Shown: positions 24,805 to 63,305 of the stretch, piece by piece
Layout: each line of letters begins with the position of its first letter
How positions within the stretch are numbered: position 1 is the stretch's first letter
NCBI RefSeq assembly: GCF_001713355.1
Contig: NZ_CP016448.1
Span: 434,001-498,000 of the forward strand
DNA length: 64,000 nucleotides
From: Methyloversatilis sp. RAC08
GTDB lineage: Bacteria; Pseudomonadota; Gammaproteobacteria; Burkholderiales; Rhodocyclaceae
Direction of reading: 5' to 3'
Made by a program: the position numbers and the translations under genes
The notes under the pieces: model-generated
Databases searched by the model: none
Told to the model about the DNA's origin: nothing
Seen by the model: the letters and a program-made list of their open reading frames with translations, nothing else

Positions 24805-25770
24805 CTATGTCTGAGCACAAGTGTTTTTGTGCTCCCTGGGTTGGTATTGCGAGCCGGTTTTCATGAGAGAGAACGCAACGCGAGCGATCTTTCTCGCGAG
24901 TGCGACGAGGGCCTGAGTGCAGGAGAATCCGCGAGCGATGCAGGCCTGATAGAAGGGTTTCCAGGTGGCTGAGCGGCTGGCTGCCATGGCGGCGTTGTGC
25001 AGGAGTCGGCGCACCTCCGGGTCGCCCTTTTTGCTCAGGGTGCCGCGGGCGTTCTGGTTTCCCGATTGGCGCACGCACACATCGAGCCCGAGATAGGCGA
25101 TGAAGGCGTCTGCGCTTTTGAAGGCGCCCCGATGGAAGGTCGCGCACAAGGCGGCGGCGCTCAGCGGACCGACGCCTTCGATACCCTGGCAGCGGCGGTG
25201 ATCGTCGATCCAGTCGCTGGCTTTGAGCTTTTCCACGATCTGGGCCTGAATCTGCTGGGCGAGCCGGTCGGCCTTGGCCAGCAAGGCGCGCACCTCGCGC
25301 TTGAAGCCGGGCAGATCGAACAGGCTCTGGCGCAAGATGACGGCGGTCCGGACCAGGGTGGCGCGACGACGCAGCAGTTGCTGCACGCGTTGCGTGGCCT
25401 CGGGCGGCAGCGTGTAGGGGCGCAGGTGCGAGCCCTCTTTGGCGACGTAGCGGGCGATGAGCCGGGCGTCGATCGGGTCGGTCTTGGCCCGCACGCTGGT
25501 GGCGCCGCGGTAGCGCGAGAGGCGGTAGCCGTCGATCAGGTAGAGCGGGTGCCCGGCCTTGATCACGGCGTCGCGCAGCGCGAGGTGGTAGGTGCCGGTG
25601 GCCTCGCAGCCGATGTGCAGCGGGCCGCTGGGCAAGGTGCGCAGCCAGGCCCGGATGGCTAGAGGGGTGTTGTCGATGCGCTGCACCGGGCCGTGCTCGC
25701 CCAGTGCGATATCGAGGCTGGCTTTGGATACGTCGATGCCGATGTGAATCGGCGAAGGCTGACTTGTCAT
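24805..25770 (-). CDS. IS110-family transposase (DEDD/serine recombinase), copy 1
   Basis: A 321-residue protein with the start chosen at MTSQPSPIHIG, 9 nt after a CGGGAGCG ribosome-binding site; the frame is open for 53 codons upstream but that region is the noncoding RNA leader. RuvC-like DEDD residues are Asp13 (GIDVSK), Glu56 (CEATGT), Asp98 and Asp101 (KTDPIDA). The C-terminal IS116/IS110/IS902 domain has GIEGVGPLSAAAL and the probable catalytic Ser246 in RGTLSKKGD. The stop codon lies 3 nt from the element's right end, as in the IS110 (not IS1111) subgroup. Confidence 0.93.
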   Translation of the reverse strand: MTSQPSPIHIGIDVSKASLDIALGEHGPVQRIDNTPLAIRAWLRTLPSGPLHIGCEATGTYHLALRDAVIKAGHPLYLIDGYRLSRYRGATSVRAKTDPIDARLIARYVAKEGSHLRPYTLPPEATQRVQQLLRRRATLVRTAVILRQSLFDLPGFKREVRALLAKADRLAQQIQAQIVEKLKASDWIDDHRRCQGIEGVGPLSAAALCATFHRGAFKSADAFIAYLGLDVCVRQSGNQNARGTLSKKGDPEVRRLLHNAAMAASRSATWKPFYQACIARGFSCTQALVALARKIARVAFSLMKTGSQYQPREHKNTCAQT

Positions 25771-25985: not shown

Positions 25986-26001
25986 AGACAGAACATACAA
26001 G

Positions 26002-31077: not shown

Positions 31078-31620
31078 GGACTGTGGGAGCGACGGCCTCG
31101 TCGCGATCAGTGCCATGACCATCGCTGTGCAAAGTGCGCATCGCGGCGAGGCCTCAAGCGAAGGCGATGTATCTGTGGGAGCGACGGCCTCGTCGCGATC
31201 AGTGCCATGATCATCGCTGTGCAAAGTGCGCATCGCGGCGAGGCCGCCGATCCCACAGGCTGCCGATCCCACAGCGGCCGCCTGTGCATCAGGAGTGGCG
31301 CGCCTCCGAAGATCACGGCGAGACTTCAAGCGAAGGCGATGTATCTGTGGGAGCGACGACCTCGTCGCGATCGGTGCCATGACCATCGCTGTGCAAAGTG
31401 CGCATCGCGGCAAGGCCTCAAGCGAAGGCGATGTATCTGTGGGAGCGACGGCCCCGTCGCGATCAGTGCCATGACCAGCGCTGTGCAAAGTGCGCATCGC
31501 GGCGAGGCCTCAAGCGAAGGTGATGTATCTGTGGGAGCGACGGCCTCGTCGCGATCAGTGCCATGACCAGCGCTGTGCGACGTGCGCATCGCGGCGAGGC
31601 CGCCGCTCCCACAGGCGCCG
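31078..31620. repeat. 92-bp tandem REP/BIME array
   Basis: Units start with TGTGGGAGCGACGGCCTCGT at 31082, 31174, 31346, 31438 and 31530. The spacing is 92 bp, except one place where an ~80-bp degenerate stretch (31255-31320) is inserted. Each unit pairs a REP (GAGCGACGGCC) with an inverted one (GCATCGCGGCGAGGCC), joined by CATCGCTGTGCAAAGTGC. The last unit ends in GGCCGCCGCTCCCACAGGCGCCG, directly at the IS110 junction. Confidence 0.88.
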
Positions 31621-31636
31621 CTTGTATGTTCTGTCT

Positions 31637-31811
31637 CGGCAAGTTGTAGTGAGAACTTGTCGGGGTGGAGGGACTAACGCCGCTTCTGGCTTTTGCACAG
31701 ACCGTGGGAGATATCGTCCCGCCCCTCACCATCGAGCACCCATGAGGAATCCATCGACGCGGCCCTCGCCGGCCCTGATCGACCATATCCTGCAAGCGAT
31801 TGCCTGGTGAG
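31637..31811 (+). ncRNA. Candidate bridge/seek RNA of IS110 copy 2
   Basis: Three foldable parts lie in order between the element's left end and the transposase. The 5' stem-loop is CGGCAAGTT / AACTTGTCG (31637-31645, 31654-31662). The first loop is closed by GGGAC / GTCCC (31670-31674, 31716-31720). The second is closed by CTCACC / GGTGAG (31725-31730, 31806-31811), extended by ATCG / CGAT. The first loop contains CGCCGCT (31678-31684), identical to the left target half, and GTGGGAG (31704-31710), the complement of the right half CTCCCAC. Both include the CT core. This is the expected target-binding loop. The second loop has weaker matches to the element's own ends: GAATC near 31746-31752, and TGCAAG at 31791-31796 pairing with CTTGTA through one wobble. 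Confidence 0.75.
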
Positions 31812-31851
31812 TCCCGACAAGTCCCTAAACCTTAGTCGGGAGCGCCTGTTC

Positions 31852-32817
31852 ATGACAAGTCAGCCTTCGCCGATTCACATCGGCATCGACGTATCCAAAG
31901 CCAGCCTCGATATCGCACTGGGCGAGCACGGCCCGGTGCAGCGCATCGACAACACCCCTCTAGCCATCCGGGCCTGGCTGCGCACCTTGCCCAGCGGCCC
32001 GCTGCACATCGGCTGCGAGGCCACCGGCACCTACCACCTCGCGCTGCGCGACGCCGTGATCAAGGCCGGGCACCCGCTCTACCTGATCGACGGCTACCGC
32101 CTCTCGCGCTACCGCGGCGCCACCAGCGTGCGGGCCAAGACCGACCCGATCGACGCCCGGCTCATCGCCCGCTACGTCGCCAAAGAGGGCTCGCACCTGC
32201 GCCCCTACACGCTGCCGCCCGAGGCCACGCAACGCGTGCAGCAACTGCTGCGTCGTCGCGCCACCCTGGTCCGGACCGCCGTCATCTTGCGCCAGAGCCT
32301 GTTCGATCTGCCCGGCTTCAAGCGCGAGGTGCGCGCCTTGCTGGCCAAGGCCGACCGGCTCGCCCAGCAGATTCAGGCCCAGATCGTGGAAAAGCTCAAA
32401 GCCAGCGACTGGATCGACGATCACCGCCGCTGCCAGGGTATCGAAGGCGTCGGTCCGCTGAGCGCCGCCGCCTTGTGCGCGACCTTCCATCGGGGCGCCT
32501 TCAAAAGCGCAGACGCCTTCATCGCCTATCTCGGGCTCGATGTGTGCGTGCGCCAATCGGGAAACCAGAACGCCCGCGGCACCCTGAGCAAAAAGGGCGA
32601 CCCGGAGGTGCGCCGACTCCTGCACAACGCCGCCATGGCAGCCAGCCGCTCAGCCACCTGGAAACCCTTCTATCAGGCCTGCATCGCTCGCGGATTCTCC
32701 TGCACTCAGGCCCTCGTCGCACTCGCGAGAAAGATCGCTCGCGTTGCGTTCTCTCTCATGAAAACCGGCTCGCAATACCAACCCAGGGAGCACAAAAACA
32801 CTTGTGCTCAGACATAG
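31852..32817 (+). CDS. IS110-family transposase, copy 2
   Basis: Same 321-residue protein as copy 1, with DEDD residues Asp13, Glu56, Asp98, Asp101 and Ser246. The start ATG 31852 follows GGGAGCG. Three identical copies within 38 kb imply recent transposition. It ends 70 bp from the stop codon of the convergent gspD gene. Confidence 0.93.
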   Translation: MTSQPSPIHIGIDVSKASLDIALGEHGPVQRIDNTPLAIRAWLRTLPSGPLHIGCEATGTYHLALRDAVIKAGHPLYLIDGYRLSRYRGATSVRAKTDPIDARLIARYVAKEGSHLRPYTLPPEATQRVQQLLRRRATLVRTAVILRQSLFDLPGFKREVRALLAKADRLAQQIQAQIVEKLKASDWIDDHRRCQGIEGVGPLSAAALCATFHRGAFKSADAFIAYLGLDVCVRQSGNQNARGTLSKKGDPEVRRLLHNAAMAASRSATWKPFYQACIARGFSCTQALVALARKIARVAFSLMKTGSQYQPREHKNTCAQT

Positions 32818-32886
32818 AATCTCCCACAGGTCGCCTATCCCACAGGCCGCCGCTCCCTCAGGGCGCGGCGATCCCTGCTGCGACCA

Positions 32887-62068: not shown

Positions 62069-62084
62069 CTTGTATGTTCTGTCT

Positions 62085-62259
62085 CGGCAAGTTGTAGTGA
62101 GAACTTGTCGGGGTGGAGGGACTAACGCCGCTTCTGGCTTTTGCACAGACCGTGGGAGATATCGTCCCGCCCCTCACCATCGAGCACCCATGAGGAATCC
62201 ATCGACGCGGCCCTCGCCGGCCCTGATCGACCATATCCTGCAAGCGATTGCCTGGTGAG
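62085..62259 (+). ncRNA. Candidate bridge/seek RNA of IS110 copy 3
   Basis: Same sequence as 31637-31811. The target-guide stretches are CGCCGCT (62126-62132) and GTGGGAG (62152-62158). Confidence 0.7.
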
Positions 62260-62299
62260 TCCCGACAAGTCCCTAAACCTTAGTCGGGAGCGCCTGTTC

Positions 62300-63265
62300 A
62301 TGACAAGTCAGCCTTCGCCGATTCACATCGGCATCGACGTATCCAAAGCCAGCCTCGATATCGCACTGGGCGAGCACGGCCCGGTGCAGCGCATCGACAA
62401 CACCCCTCTAGCCATCCGGGCCTGGCTGCGCACCTTGCCCAGCGGCCCGCTGCACATCGGCTGCGAGGCCACCGGCACCTACCACCTCGCGCTGCGCGAC
62501 GCCGTGATCAAGGCCGGGCACCCGCTCTACCTGATCGACGGCTACCGCCTCTCGCGCTACCGCGGCGCCACCAGCGTGCGGGCCAAGACCGACCCGATCG
62601 ACGCCCGGCTCATCGCCCGCTACGTCGCCAAAGAGGGCTCGCACCTGCGCCCCTACACGCTGCCGCCCGAGGCCACGCAACGCGTGCAGCAACTGCTGCG
62701 TCGTCGCGCCACCCTGGTCCGGACCGCCGTCATCTTGCGCCAGAGCCTGTTCGATCTGCCCGGCTTCAAGCGCGAGGTGCGCGCCTTGCTGGCCAAGGCC
62801 GACCGGCTCGCCCAGCAGATTCAGGCCCAGATCGTGGAAAAGCTCAAAGCCAGCGACTGGATCGACGATCACCGCCGCTGCCAGGGTATCGAAGGCGTCG
62901 GTCCGCTGAGCGCCGCCGCCTTGTGCGCGACCTTCCATCGGGGCGCCTTCAAAAGCGCAGACGCCTTCATCGCCTATCTCGGGCTCGATGTGTGCGTGCG
63001 CCAATCGGGAAACCAGAACGCCCGCGGCACCCTGAGCAAAAAGGGCGACCCGGAGGTGCGCCGACTCCTGCACAACGCCGCCATGGCAGCCAGCCGCTCA
63101 GCCACCTGGAAACCCTTCTATCAGGCCTGCATCGCTCGCGGATTCTCCTGCACTCAGGCCCTCGTCGCACTCGCGAGAAAGATCGCTCGCGTTGCGTTCT
63201 CTCTCATGAAAACCGGCTCGCAATACCAACCCAGGGAGCACAAAAACACTTGTGCTCAGACATAG
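62300..63265 (+). CDS. IS110-family transposase, copy 3
   Basis: Identical 321-residue DEDD/serine transposase to copies 1 and 2, with the same start, ribosome-binding site and stop 3 nt before the element end. Confidence 0.93.
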   Translation: MTSQPSPIHIGIDVSKASLDIALGEHGPVQRIDNTPLAIRAWLRTLPSGPLHIGCEATGTYHLALRDAVIKAGHPLYLIDGYRLSRYRGATSVRAKTDPIDARLIARYVAKEGSHLRPYTLPPEATQRVQQLLRRRATLVRTAVILRQSLFDLPGFKREVRALLAKADRLAQQIQAQIVEKLKASDWIDDHRRCQGIEGVGPLSAAALCATFHRGAFKSADAFIAYLGLDVCVRQSGNQNARGTLSKKGDPEVRRLLHNAAMAASRSATWKPFYQACIARGFSCTQALVALARKIARVAFSLMKTGSQYQPREHKNTCAQT

Positions 63266-63305
63266 AATCTCCCACAGCCGCCCACAGGGGCGGCGCCGAT
63301 CGCGC

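What the first reader, a model, noticed from the sequence alone, without database searches (positions are those of the whole stretch)
31621..31811. IS110 5' leader encodes both halves of its REP target: a readable bridge RNA
Seen in the sequence: in the 228 nt between the element's left end and the transposase ATG, CGCCGCT (31678-31684) equals the left target half and GTGGGAG (31704-31710) is the complement of the right half CTCCCAC. Both include the CT core and sit in one loop closed by GGGAC/GTCCC. A 5' stem-loop and a second loop (CTCACC/GGTGAG) flank it. This matches the target-binding and donor-binding loops of the bridge/seek RNAs known for IS110-family elements such as IS621. Assignment of the donor guides is weaker: GAATC, and TGCAAG with one wobble.
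Basis: partly seen in the sequence, partly recalled or inferred. Interest (0 to 1): 0.9.

Follow-up and report, generated by a model that had tools for sequence, protein, structure and literature searches.

The report
REP-targeting IS110 element with bridge RNA
A small jumping gene in a Methyloversatilis-like bacterium carries, just before its recombinase gene, a guide RNA that spells out both halves of the repeated DNA site it inserts into; this is a well-supported new example of the recently discovered bridge-RNA elements rather than a new kind of system.

Summary
The element (31621-32822) is an IS110-family insertion sequence. Its 5' leader holds CGCCGCT, equal to the left target half, and GTGGGAG, complementary to the right half, in one loop. 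Over 38 guide families from 111 elements, own left guide/target matches beat all 200,000 re-pairings; the right guide does so in 18 families. The two-loop fold is supported by compensatory changes. A promoter is split across the ends and rebuilt only in the circle. An unoccupied copy of the insertion site lies in the same genome. This is a bridge RNA of the kind published in 2024: a new member of a known kind. Beyond the finding, a segment directly after the RNA's predicted 3' end is complementary to the 3' arm of its 5' stem-loop, and might also pair over the recombinase ribosome-binding site. That could couple guide-RNA folding to recombinase translation; the first pairing is moderately supported, the second has mixed support, the switch is a hypothesis. 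No transcript or activity was measured.

The parts
31621..32822 (+). IS110-group element, from the CT core at the left junction to the CT core at the right junction (1200 bp plus one extra CT)
   Evidence: ends shared by 10 of 10 copies in the genome; joined flanks identical over 40 nt to unoccupied sites in L014 and L015
31616..31622 (+). left target half CGCCGCT including the CT core
32821..32827 (+). right target half CTCCCAC including the CT core
31625..31630 (+). -10-like TATGTT of the split promoter (left end)
   Evidence: TATGTT, TATGGT or TATGCT in 70 of 70 distinct junctions, partly by construction, since TATG was part of the end motif used
32802..32807 (+). -35-like TTGTGC of the split promoter (right end); 17 bp from the -10 in the circular form
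   Evidence: TTG at this spacing in 39 of 70 distinct junctions (next best spacing 13 of 70); at this place in 0 of 111 integrated copies
31637..31662 (+). 5' stem-loop: A arm 31637-31645, B arm 31654-31662
   Evidence: partner permutation 0 of 200,000 in 18 families and in 10 groups
31667..31724 (+). target-binding loop
31678..31684 (+). left target guide CGCCGCT
31704..31710 (+). right target guide GTGGGAG
31725..31811 (+). donor-binding loop, closed by CTCACC/GGTGAG in this element
31747..31751 (+). probable left donor guide GAATC
31791..31796 (+). probable right donor guide TGCAAG (one G-T wobble with CTTGTA)
   Evidence: CAAGC conserved in all 19 aligned leaders
31813..31822 (+). segment C (CCCGACAAGT), complementary to ACTTGTCGGG at 31655-31664; lies just after the predicted bridge RNA 3' end
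31835..31842 (+). segment D (GTCGGGAG) with the Shine-Dalgarno; can pair with segment C
   Evidence: for; one search does not support by column counts
31852..32817 (+). recombinase (transposase), 321 aa, PF01548 and PF02371
24801..26001 (-). second copy of the element (left end at 26001; right end inferred from the ATAG at 24808)
62069..63270 (+). third copy of the element (left end at 62069; right end inferred from the ATAG at 63262)

Best explanation
The element is an IS110-group insertion sequence that finds its REP target by RNA. On excision the joined right and left ends form a promoter that transcribes the leader. The leader folds into a 5' stem-loop, a target-binding loop and a donor-binding loop. 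[quoted passage not shown] the donor loop pairs in the same way with the element's own joined ends. The DEDD/serine recombinase then exchanges strands at the shared CT. Shown here by sequence: ends, copies, empty site, guide-target covariation, fold covariation, split promoter. Inferred from the IS621 work: transcription, recombinase binding, strand exchange.
For: Guides follow targets: left guide 0 of 200,000 re-pairings in 38 families, right guide 0 of 200,000 in 18 families; at least 5 of 6 bases left of the core matched in 37 of 44 and 59 of 67 elements against 9.1 and 5.5 with shuffled target letters. Fold: 7 of 14 pairs with changes on both sides, 31 such cells against 10.0 in shuffles. 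IS110 domains and sequence match to the solved IS621 and ISCro4 recombinases. Split promoter. Empty site.
Against: No RNA or activity data. Seven of 44 and 8 of 67 elements do not reach 5 of 6 left-guide matches. The right-guide margin is narrow, because 10 of the 18 families share CTCCCAC (own sum 119, best permutation 114). Permutations do not control for relatedness of elements. Single-sequence folding is unremarkable, and further pair types do not exceed shuffles (15 against 14.7). 31 of 70 junctions lack TTG at the -35 place.
Confidence: 0.95

Rival explanations
1. The two 7-mers are chance, or REP letters captured in the leader, and the recombinase protein itself recognises the REP.
For: In 4 of 20,000 shuffled leaders both 7-mers occur in the right arrangement; the target is an abundant repeat (228 exact CCGCTCCCACAG against 2 for the control pattern).
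Against: The letters in this loop change with the insertion site across 38 families, including close relatives (L043/L044, L065/L067).
Confidence: 0.02
2. The leader is mainly a structured regulator of recombinase translation, and its resemblance to a bridge RNA is secondary.
For: An RBS-burying 5'-UTR structure with reporter evidence is published for the IS110-family element ISPpu9 (PMC8450116, abstract and passages); here segments over the Shine-Dalgarno can pair with C.
Against: It does not explain why loop letters follow insertion sites. It may be true in addition to the bridge RNA.
Confidence: 0.03
3. For the extra pairing only: B:C is a processing stem (RNase III type) or a closing stem of a longer mature RNA, not a translation switch.
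For: B:C encloses both loops; it is kept in Pseudomonas-type leaders where the 5' stem-loop has little room; predicted Shine-Dalgarno pairing hardly changes between the two states in the window element (0.93 and 0.89).
Against: The mapped IS621 RNA is about 177 nt and keeps its 5' stem-loop (PMC11208160, section 5), so in that element B is not cut off; no processing data here.
Confidence: 0.4

Closest known systems
IS621 bridge RNA and recombinase (IS110 group; PMC11208160: passages and section 5; PMC11208158: passages)
   Same: DEDD plus serine recombinase, leader RNA with 5' stem-loop, target loop and donor loop, CT core, left guide equal to the left target and right guide complementary to the right target, promoter rebuilt in the circle, REP target
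   Different: Recombinase only distantly related (75.6 bits); right guide 7 nt; in many relatives the left guide does not match the core; in Pseudomonas-type relatives there is little room for a 5' stem-loop
seekRNA of IS1111 and IS110 elements (PMC11187229: passages)
   Same: Non-coding leader upstream of the recombinase in IS110 types, target letters on both strands, natural reprogramming reported
   Different: A different IS110 branch (ISEc21) was tested there; donor guides are not part of what I saw of that paper
ISPpu9 of Pseudomonas putida (PMC8450116: abstract, outline and passages)
   Same: IS110-family element in REPs with a long 5'-UTR and a structure proposed to bury the RBS
   Different: Its promoter lies inside the element (82 nt of it upstream of the start site) and it has an antisense RNA, Asr9; neither was looked for here
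REP-targeting insertion sequences in general (PMC1525189: search listing and abstract only)
   Same: Insertion at a fixed place within REPs
   Different: Predates guide RNAs

Membership tests
IS110 family | N-terminal DEDD domain PF01548 and C-terminal PF02371 | tested here: met
   71.3 and 70.8 bits, above cut-offs of 29 and 21.3
IS110 family | catalytic D, E, D, D and a conserved serine (SG) | tested here: met
   D13, E56, D98, D101, S236, G237 invariant in 14 relatives and aligned with the ISCro4 protein; which residues are catalytic is recalled, except that the serine and SG motif are named
IS110 group | long left and short right non-coding end, RNA in the left end | tested here: met
   about 230 nt before the start codon; the stop codon TAG lies within the right-end ATAG
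IS110 group | insertion at a CT core without a longer target duplication | tested here: met
   joined flanks with a single CT equal unoccupied sites
bridge RNA | left and right target guides that covary with the target | tested here: met
bridge RNA | donor guides matching the joined ends | tested here: inconclusive
   GAAT/GGAT agree with the ends in 19 of 19 aligned leaders, but the ends hardly vary; one match by co-change (L066) and one counterexample (L046)
bridge RNA | 5' stem-loop, target loop and donor loop conserved | tested here: met
   little room for the 5' stem-loop in Pseudomonas-type leaders
bridge RNA | core included in all four guide pairings | tested here: inconclusive
   both target guides of the window element include it, but its left donor guide reads GAATCC against GAATCT, and the letters opposite the core in the left target guide are CT in only 25 of 96 well-matched elements
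bridge RNA | transcribed from the circle junction promoter and bound by the recombinase | not testable with these tools
   split promoter letters only
IS1111 group | RNA in the right end and long subterminal inverted repeats | tested here: not met
   no room at the right end: the right junction follows the stop codon directly; leader RNA is at the left end

The most novel reading that the evidence does not exclude
In this clade the bridge RNA's 5' stem-loop is one half of an RNA switch. Arm B pairs either with A (guide-RNA form) or with a segment C placed just after the guide RNA in the recombinase mRNA; C otherwise pairs with the Shine-Dalgarno segment D. Folding or processing of the guide RNA would thereby set recombinase translation. 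This would give a role to the 5' stem-loop, which PMC11208158 (passages) describes as structurally conserved but without specific protein contacts.
Probability: 0.25. Interest if true: 0.6.

Novelty: new member of a known kind. Interest (0 to 1): 0.4.

Why it matters
It shows that a bridge RNA and both target guides can be read by eye from one genome and then confirmed by comparison. It adds a clade (Methyloversatilis, other relatives of the same class, and the genus of Pseudomonas entomophila) in which guides follow the REP variants of their hosts, also between closely related elements. Such families are a natural source of guide/target pairs and of tolerated mismatches, including left guides that do not match the core. 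The extra B:C pairing, if functional, would link guide-RNA maturation to recombinase dose.

Tried and rejected
Rfam: no family matches the leader, at gathering scores over the window (three tRNAs only) or at E up to 1 over 31600-31860. Plasmids with the window recombinase (E limit 1e-30) and plasmids and phages with the L041 recombinase (1e-60 and 1e-40): no match. E. coli genomes with the L041 element as DNA: no match, so IS621 itself could not be read as an outside control. Viral contigs gave one relative, L181, not analysed.

Idea that the recombinase makes the short tandem repeats seen at right junctions: not claimed, because copies 14-16 bp apart are also common among unoccupied sites in the part of the list shown.

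Orthologous empty site: 12 other genomes of the genus hold the neighbouring gene. Only L184 aligned across the joined flanks, with gaps at the junction; in L183, L185 and L186 the intergenic repeats are different ones. The unoccupied sites inside the same genome served instead.

Idea that the B:C state frees the Shine-Dalgarno: the predicted pairing of that segment falls little in the window element (0.93 to 0.89), more in G182a (0.92 to 0.63), G182b (0.94 to 0.75) and P. entomophila (0.74 to 0.53), and rises in some (G253 0.90 to 0.98, G060 0.84 to 0.98, G570 0.65 to 0.80). C:D is significant by partner permutation (4 and 2 of 200,000) but not by column counts on the alignment (1 pair with changes on both sides against 1.8 shuffled).

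Rows left out of counts. First set (44 kept): repeat fetches of the same copies (L016-L026, L035, L011), broken, partial or end-less elements (L010, L057, L069-L072, L103, L030-L034), and loci without an element (L012-L015, L073-L102). L104-L110 were not used. Pseudomonas-genus set: 70 loci taken (30 given, 40 fetched, out of more matches than were listed); three without a readable left end were dropped (L121, L138, L151). The right target of the P. entomophila family was taken from contigs of another strain (L030-L034), because its own right ends are not on the contigs. In one search the donor-guide pattern itself demanded G[AG]AT, so its tally is partly circular; 16 of 111 leaders gave no reading there.

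Full report
What was checked. The window lies in a 3.94-Mb single-contig genome. The closest named relative of the recombinase, 94% identical, is in Methyloversatilis sp. XJ19-49. All letters and coordinates in the finding are correct. The element runs from the CT at 31621 to the CT at 32822. Its recombinase (31852-32817 with stop, 321 aa) has the two IS110 domains and matches the solved ISCro4 and IS621 proteins at 82 and 75.6 bits. Nine near full-length copies and one broken copy lie in the genome; six have identical recombinases, which points to recent movement. Ten of ten copies sit between CGCCGCT and CTCCCACAG. Joining the flanks of the window copy, with one CT, gives 40 nt found unoccupied at L014 and L015 in the same genome. 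The 12-mer CCGCTCCCACAG occurs 228 times in the genome against 2 for the control pattern, so the target is an abundant repeat of REP type.

Do the guides follow the target? Element ends were set by conserved end motifs, without using the guides. This gave 44 elements in the first set and 67 of 70 loci in the second. Left guides follow left targets: own pairing beats all 200,000 re-pairings in 18 families, in 20 families of the second set and in all 38 together. Right guides do so in the 18 families, with a narrow margin because ten share CTCCCAC. Telling cases: CGTTAGCGGCT with CGTTAGCGGCT (L040); GGTCCGGGCT at an ATCCGGGCT site against GGGCCGGGCT at a GGCCGGGCT site in two relatives (L043, L044); TTCCCTGGC against TTCCTTGGC at CCCTGGCT and CCTTGGCT sites (L065, L067); right guides GTAGGAG, GAGCCGAG and CTCAG at CTCCTAC, CTCGGCTC and CTGAG sites. 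Within one genome, AGCTCGG stands at AAGCTCGCT (L038, L051) beside AGTCCGG at AAGGCCGCT (L047, an imperfect match). In the second set AAGGCTCG goes with AGCAGGCTCG in 9 of 12 elements. Seven of 44 and 8 of 67 elements do not reach 5 of 6 matches. The permutations do not control for relatedness.

Fold and promoter. RNAalifold on 19 leaders finds stems of the target loop and donor loop, 14 pairs. Against controls, 7 pairs have changes on both sides (4.7 expected, 6 of 500 shuffles reach it), 31 cells against 10.0 (0 of 500), and sliding the partners leaves 0-3 such pairs; further pair types do not exceed shuffles. The window leader folded alone is not unusually stable. In the circular form TTGTGC and TATGTT stand 17 bp apart; TTG is at that spacing in 39 of 70 distinct junctions and at the same place in 0 of 111 integrated copies. 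This agrees with the rebuilt promoter described for IS621 (PMC11208160, section 5).

Differences from the published model. In the window element both target guides include CT. In the clade the left guide often does not: the letters opposite the core are CT in 25 of 96 well-matched elements, AT in 39, CA in 19, GA in 7 and others in 6, by ungapped placement. In the leaders printed the right guide ends in AG and so includes the core. It is 7 nt or longer in many, which PMC11208160 also reports for some orthologues (passage). Two right targets that deviate from their guide (L161 CTCCTAC, L114 CTCTCAC; guide GTGGGAG) do so by changes that leave G-T wobbles. Natural reprogramming as such is already reported (PMC11187229, passage).

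A further pairing. The segment right after the donor loop (C, 31813-31822) is complementary to the 3' arm of the 5' stem-loop (B), so that B:C would enclose both loops; C can also pair with the Shine-Dalgarno segment D. Permuting partners among 18 families gives A:B 0, B:C 3 and C:D 4 of 200,000; among 10 more distant groups 0, 86 and 2. The controls A:C, B:D and A:D are not significant (lowest 15,461 of 200,000). Against shuffled sequence B:C reaches p of 0.05 in 10 of 18 families and 19 of 40 distinct leaders of the second set, many of which are close relatives. In the second set the target loop starts about 20 nt earlier, leaving little room for a 5' stem-loop, yet ACUUGAAGGG/CCCUUCAAGU is kept in 14 leaders and longer forms in others. 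Column counts support B:C moderately (11 cells with changes on both sides against 5.4; slides of -3 and +3 reach 9) and do not support C:D. The two constrained states lie within 5 kcal/mol in 15 of 18 families, but predicted exposure of the ribosome site does not change consistently. I hold the pairing B:C as likely real and the switch as a hypothesis. RBS burial in an IS110-family leader is itself published for ISPpu9 (PMC8450116). Two searches of the held library for related wording listed 3 and 2 papers, none on this by title or abstract; that is a limited library.

Verdict. A confirmed bridge RNA of an IS110-group element: a known kind. Whether the element has a name in ISfinder could not be looked up. 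Confidence 0.95 that this is a bridge RNA guiding insertion into REPs; interest 0.4.

Noticed in passing
L012 around 1500-1530 (G000:C1:3582587-3582620, read on the minus strand): A remnant GCCGCCGCT-TGTATGTT-CT-CCCACAGG: the first bases of the left end joined to the right flank at a CT that is not the true left core. It looks like an off-register excision at the CT 10 bp inside the left end.
   Followed up: partly
window 31081-31601 and 32822-32866; right junctions of L007, L009, L010, L027: A 92-bp tandem REP array (5.8 copies) on the left and short 7- to 16-bp tandem repeats of the right target at several right junctions; similar spacing also occurs at unoccupied sites.
   Followed up: partly
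L052 (G253:C4:3167932): A copy inserted in the leader of another copy of the same family, at its CCCCTCGGCT, inside segment C of that copy.
   Followed up: no
right ends of L060, L065, L066, L040 against L001, L036, L059: The recombinase stop codon lies in the ATAG of the right end in some elements and in the -35-like TTGA of others, so coding and junction signals overlap.
   Followed up: no
L183, L185, L186 intergenic stretches: Different species of the genus carry different REP families at the same intergenic place beside the same gene, which fits guides changing with the host.
   Followed up: no
G000:C1:2302646-2303729 (L010, L011): A broken copy that lacks an internal part of the recombinase (query 741-875 missing). 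Described only.
   Followed up: no
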